Shown here one piece after another: positions 1 through 29,731 of a DNA stretch of 63,394 nucleotides. The notes under the pieces were generated by a model, which was not told the DNA's origin, did no database searches, and was given only the letters and a program-made list of their open reading frames with translations. Position numbers and translations under genes: made by a program. Within the stretch, counting starts at the first letter, position 1, and each line of letters opens with the position of its first letter. Source of the DNA: Rhodothermales bacterium (lineage in GTDB: Bacteria; Bacteroidota; Rhodothermia; Rhodothermales; VXPQ01); contig JAJECT010000020.1 in assembly GCA_022821845.1 (NCBI GenBank), positions 1 through 63,394 of the forward strand, written 5' to 3'.

Positions 1-175
1 TATGCGCATGGCCGAGGAAGCTGGTTTCACCGTATGCGATCTTATTATCAAGATTCGCCGCGGTCCCATGATTTCTGATCGATGGAAAAACGCCCACCAT
101 GCACGCAAGCGACACTGTTTCTGGATTATTTGCCGAAACAGTGATCGGTGCGAACGCCTTCCGAACCGTGACTGA
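1..175 (+). CDS. DNA methyltransferase, C-terminal end (partial)
   Basis: An open frame enters from the left edge and ends at TGA 173-175, giving 57 residues from position 2. The tail contains R-G-P...W..AHHARKRHCFWIICR. This 'HHARRRH.YW' style ending is typical of amino-group (N4/N6) DNA methyltransferases, which modify restriction sites in the cytoplasm. The adjoining GIY-YIG restriction gene supports the call: the two would form a Type II restriction-modification pair. No catalytic motif is inside the window, so the base modified and the specificity cannot be read. It does not look like the end of a C5-cytosine methylase, although I cannot exclude that. The frame has no visible start because the gene begins before base 1. 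Confidence 0.55.
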   Translation, partial: MRMAEEAGFTVCDLIIKIRRGPMISDRWKNAHHARKRHCFWIICRNSDRCERLPNRD

Positions 176-773
176 TATCCGCGAATATAACCCCCTGTCC
201 ATTGACGAGCTTGGCAAAAACGCTGTGCGCACGCTGCTGGATTATCCATCTGTCGATCTGCCTCCAGAACGATCATTCAATGGCATAGGCGTCTATACGA
301 TTCACTACCACGGCGCATTTCTTGCGTACGAAGGAATAGACGCATCGAAACCGATTTATGTAGGCAAGGCCGAAAATCCCGGAAAACGACAAGGCAGACA
401 ACCCTCAAGAAGATCATCCCCCGTCCTTTACCGCCGCTTGTCGGAACATGCCCAATCAATCACGAGCGTCGAAAATCTTGACCTGCGAGATTTTAGCTGT
501 CGCTGGCTGGTTCTTGATCCGATTTGGATCGGACTGACCGAACAAGTTCTCATTGCCGCATACCGGCCAATCTGGAATGCCGTTGTAGACGGATTCGGAA
601 ATCACGATCCAGGAAGCGGAAGACGCAACCAGAGACGGTCGTCATGGGATACGCTACATCCAGGCCGCAAATGGGCTGCACGTCTTCGCGAAAGCACATA
701 CGATATTCCCGCGATTTGCGACAAGATCGAATCCCACCGGCAAAAGGGCGGCGTCTCCCGCCCGCCTCTATAA
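168..773 (+). CDS. Eco29kI-like GIY-YIG Type II restriction endonuclease
   Basis: A protein of about 201 residues that would cut DNA as the nuclease of a Type II restriction-modification system. Counting from GTG 168, the GIY-YIG core is G-V-Y (41-43) and Y-V-G-K (64-67), then R90 and H94, E125 and N137. The R-x3-H and E-x11-N spacings match what I recall of the Eco29kI active site (R104/H108, E142/N154), and the length is close to Eco29kI (214). An ATG at 99 would add 23 residues lying inside the methylase frame. GTG 168 overlaps the methylase stop by a few bases and starts the protein just before the conserved YNPLS...LG segment, so I prefer it. Eco29kI itself cuts CCGCGG, but specificity here is untested. 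Confidence 0.8.
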   Translation: MTDIREYNPLSIDELGKNAVRTLLDYPSVDLPPERSFNGIGVYTIHYHGAFLAYEGIDASKPIYVGKAENPGKRQGRQPSRRSSPVLYRRLSEHAQSITSVENLDLRDFSCRWLVLDPIWIGLTEQVLIAAYRPIWNAVVDGFGNHDPGSGRRNQRRSSWDTLHPGRKWAARLRESTYDIPAICDKIESHRQKGGVSRPPL

Positions 774-1162: not shown

Positions 1163-1316
1163 GGTATACCGCCCGGTCTACCTGCCTGCAACCTTATGTA
1201 TACCGATCAGTATACCTTTAATCCGCGCAAGTAGACTGATTAGTATACCGCAGCAGTCGTAAGGTAGACTGTCAAGTATACTACAGGGCGCATGGGCGTA
1301 TACCGAGCGGTCTACT
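1163..1316. promoter_or_regulatory. Array of five 20-bp TetR-type operator palindromes
   Basis: Five palindromes of 8-4-8 bases lie at 1163-1182, 1197-1216, 1230-1249, 1263-1282 and 1297-1316. The half-site consensus is RGTA(T/G)AC(C/T), for example GGTATACC-GCCC-GGTCTACC in the first and AGTAGACT-GATT-AGTATACC in the third. Start-to-start spacing is 34, 33, 33 and 34 bases, and the 13-14-base spacers are unrelated to each other. The symmetry and GTAGACY-N4-RGTCTAC core resemble operators of TetR-family repressors. A TetR gene begins 111 bases downstream on the same strand, so autoregulation is the simplest reading. The promoter itself is not obvious. Confidence 0.75.
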
Positions 1317-1426: not shown

Positions 1427-2344
1427 ATGGATGCAAACAAGCCAATAGAGACGCCGAGCCAGGAACGGGGCGAAATGCGCGAAGAAACGCAGGACCAGGA
1501 AACCCCGTCGCGGGCGATACAGAAAGCAAGTCCAGACCAGGCGCCCAAACAAAACACAGACTCGCAGCCCGAAGCGCAAGGCGAGCAGTTGCGTACGGAT
1601 ATTCTGAACGCCGCCTCGGCGCTGTTTGGAAACAAGGGGTATCAGGCCGTCTCCGTGGACGCCATTTCCCGGGAAGCGAAGGTGGCGAAACGTACGCTAT
1701 ACCGCTATTTCAAATCCAAGGACGAACTCGTACTCGAATACCTCGGCATAGAGGCGGCCCATATCCTGCACTGGCTGCGCATAAGCACGGAAAGCGGCCG
1801 GACGCCGCTGGAAAAGATCAAAGCGTTTTTTTCGGCCCTTGCCGAACGCACGGCTTCCCCTCGCTGCCGGGGCTGTCCCTTCCAGATGGCCTTGAGCGAA
1901 TATCCCGATGCGGATCATGCAGCGAACCGGCTTGCCCGGCGACACAAGGAGGCCATCCGGGCCGAATTGCAGAAATGGAGCGCCGACGCCGGGTTTCGGG
2001 ACATTGCGGGGACCGTCCACCGCCTGTATATGCTGATGGAAGGGGCCTGGGCCTGCGCTCGCCTGCGGGGAACGTCGCTCGAACAGGTTCCGGCGCAGCA
2101 TCGGGTCGCGTCGCTGAACCATGCTGTCGTGTTGCTAACGAGCGGCGGGCTCTATGCAGAGACCCTGACTGCCGCTTCTTCGCGAACGCGCTGGCGCCGA
2201 TCCGGGCGATCTTCTGGCGGTTCGGATCAGGCGGACGGACCAGATCGTCCCGAAGGCGAAGAAGAAGCGCCTATCGATACCGGAACGCTTTCCCTTTTCG
2301 AGGACCCCTGGTTTTCAAGCCCGGAACGGCGCACACGGGATTAA
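1427..2344 (+). CDS. TetR/AcrR family transcriptional regulator
   Basis: A repressor-type DNA-binding protein of 305 residues counted from ATG 1427. Residues about 53-105 form a TetR N-terminal helix-turn-helix (LRTDILNAASALFGNKGY...SVDAISREAKVAKRTLYRYFKSKDEL). The rest is the helical ligand-binding and dimer domain, with a CRGCPF segment also seen in AcrR-like members, and then an acidic tail of about 45 residues. The open frame extends up to an ATG at 1292, but that start lies inside the fifth operator palindrome and gives a long basic leader with no family match. Even from 1427 the first 50 residues are low-complexity and rich in Q, E and K. No target operon is adjacent: the upstream gene is a restriction enzyme and the downstream gene converges. 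Ligand unknown. Confidence 0.85.
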   Translation: MDANKPIETPSQERGEMREETQDQETPSRAIQKASPDQAPKQNTDSQPEAQGEQLRTDILNAASALFGNKGYQAVSVDAISREAKVAKRTLYRYFKSKDELVLEYLGIEAAHILHWLRISTESGRTPLEKIKAFFSALAERTASPRCRGCPFQMALSEYPDADHAANRLARRHKEAIRAELQKWSADAGFRDIAGTVHRLYMLMEGAWACARLRGTSLEQVPAQHRVASLNHAVVLLTSGGLYAETLTAASSRTRWRRSGRSSGGSDQADGPDRPEGEEEAPIDTGTLSLFEDPWFSSPERRTRD

Positions 2345-2443: not shown

Positions 2444-4378
2444 TCAAGAGGCGTTTTCTTCAGCCCCCTCCATCTCCACCACGAAAAGCGATTGCCTGTC
2501 CACGCACCGCCGCGTCTGTTCTTCGCGCGCCACCCGGAGGCCCGCCTCGCGAAAAGAGTGCAGCCAATCTTCGTGGGTCCGAAAACGCAGGGGTCCCTCC
2601 TGCCTGGGCGCAGGCTCCCCTATCGACCGAAGGCGATTCGCCAGGCGATCCAGCCTGCAGAGCAACGCCAGTTCCCATTTCCACGCATACGTCGATTCAA
2701 GGATCGCCACGCGGCGGCTGACCCGCAGCGTTTCGCGGAGCAACGCTTCCGGGCGCTCGGCGTGATGCAGGACAAAAACCAGGAGGGCCGCGTCGAAGGT
2801 TCCGGGAGCGTAGGGCAAATGCCGCCCGTCGTACGCATCCAGCGGAAGCGACGTCCTGTTCCGGTCGAGGATATCCGCCAGGCGCGCCTGCGCCCCAAGG
2901 CGTTTCGCCACCTGCGCCCCCACATATCCTTCGGCGGCGCCTACGTCGAGCACAGATCGGGATCCCTCCAGGAAACGCGCGAGGCGGGCGGCTTTGCGGG
3001 CGGCCCGAAGCCGCAGCAAGAGGTCCGTAAGCCCGCGACGATACCGCCAGGCAGCCAGCGCGGTCCAGCCTCCCCATCCCGCCCAGATCCATAGCCAATA
3101 GGGGCCCCCCGTATAGAGCAAGTACGTCCCCAGCGAACAGACGGACAATCCGTACCAATGCCATGCAGGACGTTCCGCAGGCGCGGCAAGCGCGAGAACG
3201 CCCAGCAAATACCACGGATGCACGGTGGTGGCGCATACGAGAAAGCCGCCCGCCGCCCAAACGAACACGGGCCGCAGCGGGCCGTCCTCGCGCAAAATAT
3301 CTTGCGGACCCGCCCAGGCTTTCCAGCCGGTTCCTGCAGGTTTGCGTCGTTGCATATAGAGCATGCCCAGCCCCGTCAGGTACAGCGCGGCAAGCACAGG
3401 GCCAAGCCATTTGCTCAGGTCCAGTCCGGTCAAAAGCATCAAAAAATACTTCAAGTTATAGTATAATCCTGCATTAAATTCAAAAAGGCGCACATAGAGA
3501 TCAAGCGATGAACCCATGTTTTGCATTATGTCCGTTATCCCAATATTCAGGAACGGCAACGCAGGCGCGAGCGCCATGCCAAGGCTTGCCGCCACGCTCT
3601 TCCAGCCAAAGCGGCGCCAGACAAAAGGAAGCAGCAGGAACGGGTACAGTTTGACCCCGCCCGCGCAGGCCAGCCAGACGGAAGCCCAAATCCCCCGATC
3701 CCTCCTGAGCGCAAGCAACGCCAGCGCCAGAAACAAAACCATCGCCGCTTCGCCATGCCCCTGCCCGGCCCCCGCAAGCACGACCGCCGGATTCCATGCG
3801 TACATCAGCAGTTGTCTCGGAGCCAGCATGCGCCCCAGCGTCAGCACCGCCCCGAATTCGAAGAGCGCCAGAATCCCCTTGACAACGAACCAGGAAACGT
3901 CCCAGCCCTGGTCGTAGAAGGCAGCCCCGATCCGAAAAATCAGCTGGGAGACTGGCGGGTATACCGTGTGCAAGCCGGGCGAATTGAGTTCGTCGTACAG
4001 GGGTTCTTCGCGCAGGGCTTCCAGTTCCGGGCTGTCGGGCGCGTGGAGATAGGGATTGTGCCCTTCGGCTTGCACAAGACCGTCCCATACGTACCGATAG
4101 GCGTCGTCGGAAAGGGTTGGGGGAAGCCAGAATACGGCCAGCCGGAAGACCAGGGCCAACGCCACGACGACAGGCATGGAGACGTCTCCCCGTTTCCAGA
4201 CGAGGACGCACAGGGCGCCGGCAGCCAGCGCCGCTGCGACGAAGGCCCCGCGGGTTTCCGGCCCAGCCGCCCAGTAGGCCATGCCGCCCATGGCAAGCGT
4301 CAACAGCCCCAGCAGGATCAGGGTGCGGCCCGAGGGCCTGACCGAAGCGGTTTTGGTCAGATTATCCTTACCCGGCAT
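2444..4378 (-). CDS. Membrane GT-C glycosyltransferase fused to a SAM methyltransferase
   Basis: A 644-residue two-domain protein. Residues about 18-445 hold roughly ten to eleven hydrophobic segments with DDAYRYVWDG (91-100) and an H-T-V-YPP (137-142) segment, as in polyprenol-phosphate-mannose-dependent mannosyltransferases and related GT-C enzymes, whose acidic loop residues are catalytic. Residues about 460-644 are a class I methyltransferase: motif I is DVGAAEG (478-484), followed by a DAALLVFVLHH motif and a C-terminal strand. The fusion suggests transfer of a sugar on a lipid carrier and methylation of the same glycan or lipid, with the methyltransferase on the cytoplasmic side; this is inference. 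It overlaps the RsbW-like gene by 11 bases and sits in a minus-strand run with a GT4 enzyme. Acceptor and sugar unknown. Confidence 0.75.
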   Translation of the reverse strand: MPGKDNLTKTASVRPSGRTLILLGLLTLAMGGMAYWAAGPETRGAFVAAALAAGALCVLVWKRGDVSMPVVVALALVFRLAVFWLPPTLSDDAYRYVWDGLVQAEGHNPYLHAPDSPELEALREEPLYDELNSPGLHTVYPPVSQLIFRIGAAFYDQGWDVSWFVVKGILALFEFGAVLTLGRMLAPRQLLMYAWNPAVVLAGAGQGHGEAAMVLFLALALLALRRDRGIWASVWLACAGGVKLYPFLLLPFVWRRFGWKSVAASLGMALAPALPFLNIGITDIMQNMGSSLDLYVRLFEFNAGLYYNLKYFLMLLTGLDLSKWLGPVLAALYLTGLGMLYMQRRKPAGTGWKAWAGPQDILREDGPLRPVFVWAAGGFLVCATTVHPWYLLGVLALAAPAERPAWHWYGLSVCSLGTYLLYTGGPYWLWIWAGWGGWTALAAWRYRRGLTDLLLRLRAARKAARLARFLEGSRSVLDVGAAEGYVGAQVAKRLGAQARLADILDRNRTSLPLDAYDGRHLPYAPGTFDAALLVFVLHHAERPEALLRETLRVSRRVAILESTYAWKWELALLCRLDRLANRLRSIGEPAPRQEGPLRFRTHEDWLHSFREAGLRVAREEQTRRCVDRQSLFVVEMEGAEENAS

Positions 4379-4809: not shown

Positions 4810-6165
4810 TCATCCTCTTTCGGACACAATATCGTTAAAAATATCGGTCAGCGCACCGGTTAGGCGCCGGCGGTCGAATGGGGCCGCGCAGGCCGGATCC
4901 GGCTGCGGCAGGCGCCCCGCGCGCCACGCCTCGTAGCATTGTTCGAGGGCGGCGGCGACGACTTCCGGCGCCGCGTCCGGCTCCACGATGCGCGCCGCGC
5001 CGTACGCCCGAAGCGCCTCGCGCTCGACGCCTTCCGGCACAAGGCCCAGTATCGGCTTCCGGGCGCCAAAATATTCGTATATCTTGCCGGTCGATATCCG
5101 GTCGCAGCCCGGCGCGCGCCCGATGGTCATCCACAGCATGTCCGCCGCAAGGAGCGCCTTCGTCGCGTCCCGGTGCGGCAGGTAGCCCACATAATGCACC
5201 AGGTCGCCGATGCGCAGGCGCTCGACGAGACGCCGGGCCGACGCGGGCAACAAGCCTGCGAAAACAGCGCGCAGCCGGTTGCGCAACGCCGGCTTGCTTT
5301 CCGCCAGAGCCGCCAGACCCCGCAGGAATGGCTCCGGCGATTGCGCATGGTAGAATACGCCGCTATACAGAAGAGTAAATCTGTTTGGATCCGCATCGAG
5401 GCCCGGAATGCGCGGCGCGCCCGCGAAATCCTCGGGATCGTAGCCGTGCGGCACGATGCGTATGTCCCGGGCGGCGGGGATACCCGGATGCCGCCCCGCA
5501 AGACCGTCCCGCTTCGCATCATCGATGACGACGATCCGGTCCGCCGCGCGCAGGGCGCGGCCTTCCAGCCGGGTCGATAGCGCCCGGTGCCACGGGGTCG
5601 GGTAGACATGGCGCGGATTTCCAACCCAGTCGTCCCGAAAATCCAGGACCAGCGGCAAGCCGGTTTTGCGGGCAAGGCGGGCGGCGGCCAGATGCGACGC
5701 GTACGGCGGAGCGGAAGAATAAATCAAATCGCACGGAGTTTCCCGCAGCGCGGCGAGCGCCTGCCGGAGCGCGGGGCGAATCCACCCGATCTTGTTGTCC
5801 GGGACGAAGACCCATTGGCTGAGCGCAGACAACCCCTGCCGCACGGATTCGCGGGGCATGCGCACCGTGGCGCGCTGGCCGAAAAGACGGGTGGGATCCC
5901 ACGAAGCGGCGCGGCGAATCGCCACGCCCGCCTCCTCGACCTCCCGAAGCAAACTGTCGTCGTAGGCGAAATAGCCATGCGGACGACAGGTAACGACCGT
6001 CGATTCCCAGCCGTATCGGGGCAGGTATTTCAGGAATTTGGCGGTCCGCTGGACCCCGCTCAGGCCCATGGGCGGAAAATAATACGCAAAGACAAGCGCC
6101 CGCCGCGCTGGCCGTGGAGCCAGGGAAGGTTCGGAAGAAAATGTCGGAACGGCAGATCGGTTCAT
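4810..6165 (-). CDS. Glycosyltransferase family 4 protein
   Basis: A 451-residue protein expected to transfer a sugar from a nucleotide-sugar donor in the cytoplasm. Near the N-terminus it has the YYFPPMGLSGVQRTAKF motif seen in GT4 enzymes of capsule and O-antigen clusters. The C-terminal half has GT-B signatures: RFTLLYSGVF, then VHYVGYLPH...LLAADMLW and a KIYEYFGARKPILGLVPEG nucleotide-binding segment. It starts the minus-strand run with the RsbW-like kinase and the fused glycosyltransferase/methyltransferase, so a role in cell-surface glycan assembly fits. Donor and acceptor cannot be read from the sequence. Confidence 0.85.
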   Translation of the reverse strand: MNRSAVPTFSSEPSLAPRPARRALVFAYYFPPMGLSGVQRTAKFLKYLPRYGWESTVVTCRPHGYFAYDDSLLREVEEAGVAIRRAASWDPTRLFGQRATVRMPRESVRQGLSALSQWVFVPDNKIGWIRPALRQALAALRETPCDLIYSSAPPYASHLAAARLARKTGLPLVLDFRDDWVGNPRHVYPTPWHRALSTRLEGRALRAADRIVVIDDAKRDGLAGRHPGIPAARDIRIVPHGYDPEDFAGAPRIPGLDADPNRFTLLYSGVFYHAQSPEPFLRGLAALAESKPALRNRLRAVFAGLLPASARRLVERLRIGDLVHYVGYLPHRDATKALLAADMLWMTIGRAPGCDRISTGKIYEYFGARKPILGLVPEGVEREALRAYGAARIVEPDAAPEVVAAALEQCYEAWRAGRLPQPDPACAAPFDRRRLTGALTDIFNDIVSERG

Positions 6166-6226
6166 GCCATGCGTTGCGCCTGCGGGTCCTGTGAACGCCT
6201 CAGGGACTTTTCGGGTTCGGAGGCGT

Positions 6227-17831: not shown

Positions 17832-17853
17832 CGCGACGTTCCCGGCGTTCCCC

Positions 17854-18116
17854 TAAAGGATACTCTGATCAAAGCCGCTTCGCTCAGCGCGTCCCTATTG
17901 CCCGCAAAGACCGTCATGCCCGGATCATTGAAATCAGCAGAAAATACAGTAGATTCGGTACGTTGCGTCCGTGACGCGCCCTTCGGGAGGCTGCGAGGGG
18001 CACGCTGGCTGTGTCATTCCTCATTATGTGGGGCCTGCCACATCGCTTCGTCATTCCTTGCCAGCGCACCCCTCGCATGCCTCTGAGCTTTGCGGATTTA
18101 ATCAGAGTATCCTAAA
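17854..18116 (+). mobile_element. MITE-like element, copy A (263 bp)
   Basis: A non-coding element with inverted ends AGGATACTCTGAT / ATCAGAGTATCCT; the match continues loosely for about 35 bases on each side. It is flanked on both sides by TAAA, which may include the target duplication. A second copy lies at 29422-29687: the first 66 bases are identical, the last 100 nearly so, and overall identity is about 90% by eye. Inside, GCGAGGGGCACGCTGG and CCAGCGCACCCCTCGC form a second inverted pair, so its RNA would fold strongly. It has no transposase and would depend on one elsewhere. Confidence 0.8.
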
Positions 18117-27124: not shown

Positions 27125-27174
27125 GGGGATACTCTGAATAAGTCTGCAAAGCGCAGCGGCCTGCGAGGATGCGG
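27125..27174 (-). repeat. Solo MITE end next to rnhA
   Basis: About 50 bases (GGGGATACTCTGAAT onward) align with the right end of the full elements read on the opposite strand, including CAAAGC, CAG and CTGCGAGG blocks, about 80% by eye. No partner end is seen before obg at 27248 or within rnhA, so it looks like a truncated copy in the divergent rnhA-obg interval. Confidence 0.55.
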
Positions 27175-28261: not shown

Positions 28262-29424
28262 TGGAAAATAAGGCAAAAAAAGGCGGCAGGGCGGCGCCGG
28301 ACACGCTGGATGGCGCGGAACGGCGGGCGATGGTGGCGCTTGCGCTGGTTCCGGGCGTGGGTTCGGGGCGCCTGCGGGCCCTGATGTCGCGGATGGGGTC
28401 GGCCCAGGCTGCGCTGGGGGCTTCCGCGGCGGCGATTGCGTCCGTTCCGGGCGTCGGACGGGATTTGGCGACGCAGATTGCCGCCGCCGACTGCGGAGAA
28501 TCGGTCGAGAAGCAGTTTGCCCGCGCCGAAGAGATTGGCGCGGAGATGGTGGCCCTTGGGGATGCAAACTACCCTTTTTTGCTGCGCCAGATAGACGATC
28601 CGCCCGCGTTTTTGTGGATGCGGGGGCGTTTGCCGGTCGCAGAGGAGCCCGCGCGCGCACTGGCCGTGGTGGGAACGCGGCGCATGTCGCCGTACGGCTT
28701 GCGCGTGACGGGCGAATTGACCGAGGCGCTGGTTCGGGAGGGTTTTTCTATTGTGAGTGGTTTGGCCTACGGCGTGGATGCGGCGGCGCATCAGGCGGCG
28801 CTGGATGCGGGCGGGCGTACGATCGCCGTCCTCGGTTCGGGCATCGACCGGGTGTATCCGGCGCGGCATCGGCGCCTTGCCGAAGACCTGATCGCCACAG
28901 GCGCCTTGTTGTCCGAATATCCCATGGGCGCGCCGCCGGACGGGCCGCATTTTCCGCGCCGAAACCGGATCGTGAGCGGGCTTGCCCTGGGGGCGCTGAT
29001 CGTGGAGGCCCATGAAGAGGGCGGCGCCTTGATTACGGCCCGCCTTGCGTTGGAGCAGAACCGGGAAGTGTTCGCCGTCCCGGGCAGCGTGCACAACCCC
29101 TCAAGCGCAGGCGTACACAGGCTGATCCAGAAGGGCGAGGCCAAACTGGTTCAGCGAGTGGAGGATATTCTGGAAGAACTGGAGATTGCGCCGGGGGCGG
29201 CGTCTGCGCCCGCGAAGCCGGCGCCTGCGCTGGACCCGGAGGAGAAGGTTTTGTGCCGGGCCCTTGCTGCCTCGGCGGGACCGTTGCATATCAATACGTT
29301 GTGCCTGACTGCGAAGATGGACCCCGCCGCGGCCCTTGCGCATTTGCTCGACCTTGAGCTGAAAGGCGTGGTCAAGCAAATGGCGGGCAAGAAATTTTTC
29401 CTGATCGCCTCGGTGGATAGCTAA
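28258..29424 (+). CDS. dprA: DNA-processing protein DprA
   Basis: A 388-residue protein that loads RecA on incoming single-stranded DNA during natural transformation. After an N-terminal helical (SAM/HhH-like) part with VPGVGSGRLRAL and VPGVGRDLA, the Rossmann core has AVVGTRRMSPYG, the signature FSIVSGLAYGVDAAAHQAAL, AVLGSGID.VYPARH, and FPRRNRIVSGLALGALIVEAHEEGGALITA. The C-terminal 70 residues form the winged-helix DML1-like domain. It starts with two consecutive ATGs overlapping the obg stop. Its TAA stop codon is also the first three bases of MITE copy B, so the element landed exactly at the end of the gene and may have altered the original last residues. Confidence 0.95.
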   Translation: MMENKAKKGGRAAPDTLDGAERRAMVALALVPGVGSGRLRALMSRMGSAQAALGASAAAIASVPGVGRDLATQIAAADCGESVEKQFARAEEIGAEMVALGDANYPFLLRQIDDPPAFLWMRGRLPVAEEPARALAVVGTRRMSPYGLRVTGELTEALVREGFSIVSGLAYGVDAAAHQAALDAGGRTIAVLGSGIDRVYPARHRRLAEDLIATGALLSEYPMGAPPDGPHFPRRNRIVSGLALGALIVEAHEEGGALITARLALEQNREVFAVPGSVHNPSSAGVHRLIQKGEAKLVQRVEDILEELEIAPGAASAPAKPAPALDPEEKVLCRALAASAGPLHINTLCLTAKMDPAAALAHLLDLELKGVVKQMAGKKFFLIASVDS

Positions 29425-29687
29425 AGGATACTCTGATCAAAGCCGCTTCGCTCAGCGCGTCCCTATTGCCCGCAAAGACCGTCATGCTTGTATCGATGCA
29501 ATCAGCAGAAAACACCGTAGATTCGGGTCGTAGGGGACGTGACGCGCCCTTCGGGAGGCTGCGAGGGGCACGCTGGCTGTGTCATTCCTCATTACGCGGG
29601 GCCGCCACACTAGCTGCTTCGTCATTCCTTGCCAGCGCACCCCTCGCATGCCTCTGAGCTTCGCGGATTTAATCAGAGTATCCTAAA
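29422..29687 (+). mobile_element. MITE-like element, copy B (266 bp)
   Basis: Same structure and orientation as copy A at 17854: inverted ends AGGATACTCTGAT / ATCAGAGTATCCT, TAAA on both sides, 66 identical starting bases, and the same internal GCGAGGGGCACGCTGG / CCAGCGCACCCCTCGC pair. It fills most of the 307-base gap between dprA and rluD. The TAA of dprA is inside its left boundary. No coding frame of note is inside. Confidence 0.8.
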
Positions 29688-29731
29688 GCCGAAAACAGAA
29701 GGGCGCTGGTTATTGTCGCCGCACATTTGCT

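What the first reader, a model, noticed from the sequence alone, without database searches (positions are those of the whole stretch)
1163..1316. Five evenly spaced TetR-type operator palindromes before a TetR gene
Five 20-bp palindromes (8-4-8, half-site RGTA(T/G)AC(C/T)) start at 1163, 1197, 1230, 1263 and 1297, i.e. every 33-34 bp, with unrelated spacers of 13-14 bp. One or two operators are normal for a TetR gene; a ruler-like array of five is not. It could allow cooperative or graded binding. It could instead be a centromere-like or recombination array that the TetR gene merely adjoins. The even period amid varied spacers suggests selection on distance, not simple tandem copying.
Basis: partly seen in the sequence, partly recalled or inferred. 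Interest (0 to 1): 0.65.

Follow-up and report, generated by a model that had tools for sequence, protein, structure and literature searches.

The report
Conserved five-operator array of sole TetR
In one genus of Rhodothermales bacteria the only TetR-type repressor gene is preceded by exactly five copies of its presumed DNA-binding site, held at a fixed 32-34 base step while the DNA between them has changed almost completely, so number and spacing appear to be under selection; most TetR genes have one or two such sites.

Summary
Five imperfect palindromes, GTA[T/G]AC[C/T]-N4-[A/G]GT[A/C]TAC, start every 33-34 bp at 1163-1316, before a TetR gene. The motif occurs nowhere else in the window or in shuffles of it. 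All six held genomes of the genus (Rhodothermales) carry the TetR ortholog and exactly five stepped sites before it. Steps are 34,33,33,34, or 34,33,32,34, or 34,34,32,33; total span is 133-134 bp. Between the two clades the spacers are near random identity, while half-sites are 86-91% identical. None of 93 other genomes of the order has either; no other genome among 395 of the phylum has a comparable array. This is the only TetR_N gene found in each genome, and some distant TetR homologues have the same operator type, in one to a few copies. The motif also recurs in all six genomes at one promoter, between an octaheme cytochrome c/TPR gene and a sulfatase-recG pair. Best reading: an autoregulatory operator array of a small-regulon repressor. 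Binding is inferred; cooperativity, titration and ligand are untested. Centromere, hairpin and recombination readings are disfavoured. The operator type is known; a conserved five-site ruler array is a new variant.

The parts
1163..1182 (.). operator 1 (distal)
   Evidence: exact motif match; position conserved in six genomes (G002's copy has 2 mismatches, G003-G005's have 1)
1197..1216 (.). operator 2
   Evidence: exact motif match; conserved in six genomes (G002's copy has 1 mismatch)
1230..1249 (.). operator 3
   Evidence: exact motif match; conserved in six genomes
1263..1282 (.). operator 4
   Evidence: exact motif match; conserved in six genomes
1297..1316 (.). operator 5 (gene-proximal)
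   Evidence: exact motif match; conserved in six genomes
1427..2344 (+). TetR-family regulator, the only TetR_N gene found in this genome; start ATG 1427 likely (ATG 1473 possible; the open frame begins at ATG 1292 just before operator 5, but that stretch is not conserved)
   Evidence: Pfam TetR_N E=3.3e-18; sole PF00440 hit in each of six genomes; orthologs 70-94% identical

Best explanation
The array is the autoregulatory operator region of the TetR-family protein encoded at 1427-2344. One homodimer is expected to bind each 18-20 bp palindrome, so up to five dimers line up about 33.3 bp apart and block the tetR promoter, which must lie in or beside the array (inferred). The same protein is inferred to control a small regulon, whose only member conserved in all six genomes is the divergent promoter of an octaheme cytochrome c/TPR gene and a sulfatase-recG pair, with one or two sites, 22-23 bp apart. 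A small-molecule or redox signal read by the C-terminal domain (CRGCPF motif, invariant in the genus) would release it. Five fixed sites would make self-repression steep and would bind a reserve of repressor. Shown: array, conservation of number and spacing, co-inheritance, sole TetR, recurring target site. Inferred: binding, repression. Speculative: cooperativity, titration, signal.
For: Co-inheritance of TetR and array in 6/6 genus genomes and absence of both in 93 of the order; no comparable array in the other phylum genomes, the one extra hit being a 12-bp tandem repeat. Exactly five stepped sites in all six, span 133-134 bp, while flanking intervals vary: 40-321 bp on the miaA side in five genomes, 66-261 bp on the TetR side. 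Half-sites 86-91% identical between clades against spacers 21-36%. It is the only TetR_N gene in each genome. Distant homologues (26-37% identity) in Duganella, Pasteurella, Deefgea and Pleurocapsa carry the same or a related operator type upstream, one to a few copies. Upstream gene in G001-G005 is miaA, co-directional, so no divergent gene explains the array. The motif recurs at the orthologous cytochrome/sulfatase promoter in all six, about 30 bp before the cytochrome start in G000. TAGAC-N6-GTCTA is a known TetR-family operator type (McbR, PMC9210681; AcuR, PMC3017554).
Against: No binding or expression data. No sigma-70-like promoter was found at 900-1620, so overlap with the promoter is inferred from position: in G002-G005 operator 5 ends about 50 bp before the likely start codon, in G000 110 bp or more. 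Six genomes of one genus are few and related. Spacing at 10.5 bp per turn would not put the dimers on one face; only about 11.1 bp per turn would. The regulon is small and functionally mixed.
Confidence: 0.8

Rival explanations
1. The array is mainly a repressor reservoir (titration sponge): five sites at the repressor's own gene hold protein so that targets are repressed only above a threshold. Spacing matters only to let five dimers fit.
For: Five sites at tetR against one or two at the conserved target and 2-4 exact sites elsewhere per genome. Competing sites change regulation in autorepressed circuits in a synthetic E. coli system (PMC7505660).
Against: A sponge needs no fixed step; the step is held to 32-34 bp in all six genomes. 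Five sites are few against typical repressor numbers (own knowledge).
Confidence: 0.25
2. A cooperative same-face assembly: dimers 3 helical turns apart at about 11.1 bp per turn touch and form a short filament or bend on underwound DNA. This is a version of the main reading, not exclusive of it.
For: Phase concentration of sites peaks at 11.1 bp per turn (R 0.96) and cumulative positions vary by at most 1 bp.
Against: At 10.5 bp per turn R is only 0.25; target promoter sites use a different 22-23 bp step; no structure or binding data.
Confidence: 0.35
3. Chromosome-organising site (centromere, terminus or nucleoid-occlusion type), with the TetR protein acting as an architectural DNA-binding protein.
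For: TetR-fold proteins with such roles exist (RefZ, SlmA; own knowledge). In the two one-contig genomes the array lies nearly opposite parS: G002 2.03 Mb against 0.64 of 2.69; G004 1.69 against 0.18 of 2.82.
Against: Canonical or near-canonical parS pairs are present elsewhere in all six genomes; RefZ model score 30 against cut-off 180; a promoter site is conserved in all six; only two genomes give position, and they share synteny.
Confidence: 0.06
4. Recombination or hairpin array (attC-like, CRISPR-like, RNA stem-loops).
For: Evenly spaced palindromes with diverse spacers look superficially similar.
Against: Symmetric variable half-site positions do not covary: position 5/16 complementary in 16 of 30 sites against 13.7 expected by independence, position 8/13 in 16 against 13.0. 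No Rfam match. No other gene lies between miaA and TetR in G001-G005. Copy number is fixed at five.
Confidence: 0.02

Closest known systems
McbR (Corynebacterium glutamicum) and AcuR (Rhodobacter sphaeroides) operators
   Same: TetR-family repressors with operator TAGAC-N6-GTCTA (McbR as cited in PMC9210681; AcuR TAATAGAC-N6-GTCTATTA overlapping its own promoter, PMC3017554)
   Different: No five-site array is described in the passages read; here the fourth base of the half-site also takes T (GTATAC); the protein is not an AcuR by NCBIfam cut-off
tetO1/tetO2 of TetR and IR1 of QacR
   Same: Palindromic operators in or beside the regulator's or target's promoter; tetO is two sites 11 bp apart and QacR binds IR1 as two dimers (PMC9210681)
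   Different: Two sites or one composite site, not five at a fixed step
EthR octamer on its 55-bp operator
   Same: Several TetR-family dimers on one extended operator, cooperative (PMC9210681)
   Different: Repeats within 55 bp; here five separate palindromes across 154 bp with unconserved spacers
Autorepressors with many sites, such as Rco of pLS20 and lambda CI
   Same: Many sites, cooperative or looping control of the regulator's own gene (PMC4207663)
   Different: Not TetR-type regulators; sites grouped in two operators

Membership tests
TetR family regulator | N-terminal TetR_N helix-turn-helix domain | tested here: met
   Pfam PF00440 E=3.3e-18, 65.6 bits, cut-off 24
TetR family regulator | Palindromic operator near its own gene | tested here: met
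   five sites, conserved in six genomes
TetR family regulator | Protein binds the operator and is released by a ligand | not testable with these tools
   needs gel shift, footprinting and ligand screen
TetR family regulator | All-helical C-terminal ligand domain and dimerisation | not tested
McbR/AcuR operator type | Operator TAGAC-N6-GTCTA | tested here: met
   30-site matrix GTA[TG]AC-N6-GT[AC]TAC, which includes it; literature
AcuR (NCBIfam NF051457) | Score above curated cut-off | tested here: not met
   31.8 bits against 247
RefZ (NCBIfam NF037937) | Score above curated cut-off | tested here: not met
   30.2 bits against 180
SlmA | Binds dispersed SBS sites and FtsZ | not tested
   no SlmA model among the 25 rows shown; SBS sites were not searched
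ParB-parS centromere | parS-type sequence | tested here: not met
   array motif differs; TGTTTCACGTGAAACA pairs (exact or one mismatch) lie elsewhere in all six genomes

The most novel reading that the evidence does not exclude
The five sites form a fixed-length scaffold on which exactly five TetR dimers assemble cooperatively along one face of underwound DNA, making a steep counting switch for the genus's sole TetR and perhaps also an architectural site near the replication terminus.
Probability: 0.12. Interest if true: 0.75.

Novelty: new variant of a known kind. Interest (0 to 1): 0.5.

Why it matters
It is a natural case in which number and spacing of repressor sites appear to be selected while the DNA between them is free to change. 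That allows a direct test of what multiple operators do for an autorepressor (steepness, noise, titration, cooperativity), and offers a natural counterpart of the multi-operator promoters built in synthetic biology.

Tried and rejected
Hairpin, attC or CRISPR reading: half-sites vary independently, no Rfam match. Centromere: parS elsewhere. Operator serving a divergent neighbour: upstream gene is co-directional miaA in G001-G005, and an Eco29kI-type nuclease gene, also co-directional, in G000. gpmI site (exact in four genomes, one mismatch in a fifth): lies in codons for GRPVGLP, so coding constraint may explain it; it uses rare codons AGA and CTA, but the motif search selects for these, left open. 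aroK-truA site: G003-G005 only, degenerate in G002. Site after a sulfatase gene in G002-G004: resembles a terminator hairpin. Two-mismatch hits are mostly noise: 57 against 58 in control at up to 2 mismatches. Sigma-70 promoter scan: none. Literature searches found no TetR gene with a five-site array, but only open-licence papers are held.

Full report
The observation. The five palindromes stand at the stated coordinates with steps of 34, 33, 33 and 34 bp. There are five exact matches in the window, none in 60 shuffles of it, and seven in the whole 2.8-Mb genome against none for the reversed control.

Relatives. The window is a whole contig (C13) of a 45-contig genome. The TetR ortholog occurs in all six genomes of the genus and in none of 93 others of the order at E 1e-15. 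The paired-site pattern gives the same six and no other. In 395 genomes of the phylum the only further hit is a 12-bp tandem repeat.

Number and spacing. Counting sites with up to two mismatches, every genome has exactly five regularly stepped sites before the TetR gene: 34,33,33,34 in G000 and G001; 34,33,32,34 in G002; 34,34,32,33 in G003, G004 and G005. One further two-mismatch match in G001, overlapping operator 3, lies off the step and was not counted. Cumulative positions are 0, 34, 67-68, 99-100 and 133-134. Half-sites are 86-91% identical between the two clades (G000-G001 against G002-G005) and spacers 21-36%, close to random (only spacers of equal length could be compared, one to three per pair of genomes between the clades). 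By contrast the interval from miaA to the array runs from 40 to 321 bp in five genomes, and from operator 5 to the conserved QGEQL codons from 66 to 261 bp. Distance is therefore held while sequence is not. The simplest cause is selection on the step; the sample is six related genomes, and no neutral model of insertions and deletions was fitted.

Which protein. The TetR gene is the only TetR_N gene found in each of the six genomes. Distant homologues, 26-37% identical over the alignment, have the same or a related operator type upstream: Duganella GTATACCGATCAGTATAC, Pasteurella ATATACCGAACGGTATAC and GTATACTGTTCGGTGTAC, Deefgea GGATACTGATCGGTGTAC, and weaker GGAGAC...GTCTAC pairs in Pleurocapsa. 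Most other homologues show no such site. The operator type TAGAC-N6-GTCTA is documented for McbR (cited in PMC9210681) and AcuR (PMC3017554). Attribution to this TetR is thus strong by inference; binding was not measured.

Protein sites or hairpins. In the 30 sites the variable symmetric half-site positions pair about as often as independence predicts (16 against 13.7, 16 against 13.0). The central pair 10/11 pairs more often than expected (19 against 11.8), mostly as A-T. This fits half-sites read separately by a dimer rather than a folded strand.

Targets. Exact matches outside the array number two to four per genome, control zero. One place recurs in all six: the divergent intergenic region between a cytochrome c/TPR gene (eight CXXCH) and a sulfatase followed by recG. 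It has two matches with at most one mismatch, 22-23 bp apart, in five genomes and one in G004. In G000 one of the pair carries a mismatch where a repeated element begins. Other sites (gpmI coding, aroK-truA, sulfatase/PhoD, G000 C45 sulfatase, G001 C47) are in fewer genomes and uncertain.

Mechanism. Most likely the array is the self-control region: dimers on the sites block the tetR promoter, and the same protein represses the cytochrome/sulfatase promoter until a signal releases it. The CRGCPF motif, invariant in the genus, makes a thiol-reactive or small-molecule signal possible; this is a guess. Why five is not known. A steeper response, a reservoir, and same-face contacts at 11.1 bp per turn are candidates and can be combined.

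Chromosome role. All six genomes hold parS pairs, exact or with one mismatch, so the array is not the usual centromere. In the two one-contig genomes the array lies roughly opposite parS; this may be incidental and rests on two genomes.

Limits.

Noticed in passing
window 17853-18116 and 29421-29688; fragments 27127-27168 and 4338-4369; G000:C3 (L008 about 5940-6203): A repeated element of about 265 bp with about 31-bp inverted ends; the two window copies are 97% and 89% identical to the one on C3, and related pieces lie in loci of all six genus genomes. The C3 copy sits in the cytochrome/sulfatase intergenic region beside the operator pair.
   Followed up: partly
window 99-773: Eco29kI-type restriction nuclease gene (Pfam RE_Eco29kI E=4.9e-59) at the contig edge, upstream of the array; in G001-G005 the upstream neighbour is miaA instead.
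   Followed up: partly
G002:C1:2034389-2034540 and G004:C1:1690235-1690386: In the two one-contig genomes the array lies nearly opposite the parS pair on the chromosome.
   Followed up: partly
gpmI in G001, G002, G004, G005 (L065-L067, L069): An exact operator match inside the gpmI coding sequence at codons for GRPVGLP, using rare codons AGA and CTA; one mismatch in G003 (L068), gpmI not found in G000.
   Followed up: partly
L059 5467, L050 5374, L082 2479: A motif-like perfect or near-perfect palindrome at the 3' end of a sulfatase gene, before a PhoD-like phosphatase gene; in G004 the change keeps pairing as G-U, which suggests a terminator.
   Followed up: no
L094, L095, L104: Distant TetR homologues in Deefgea, Pasteurella testudinis and Duganella sit divergent to a small membrane protein gene that looks like an HPP-type protein (by eye), with the same operator type between them.
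   Followed up: no
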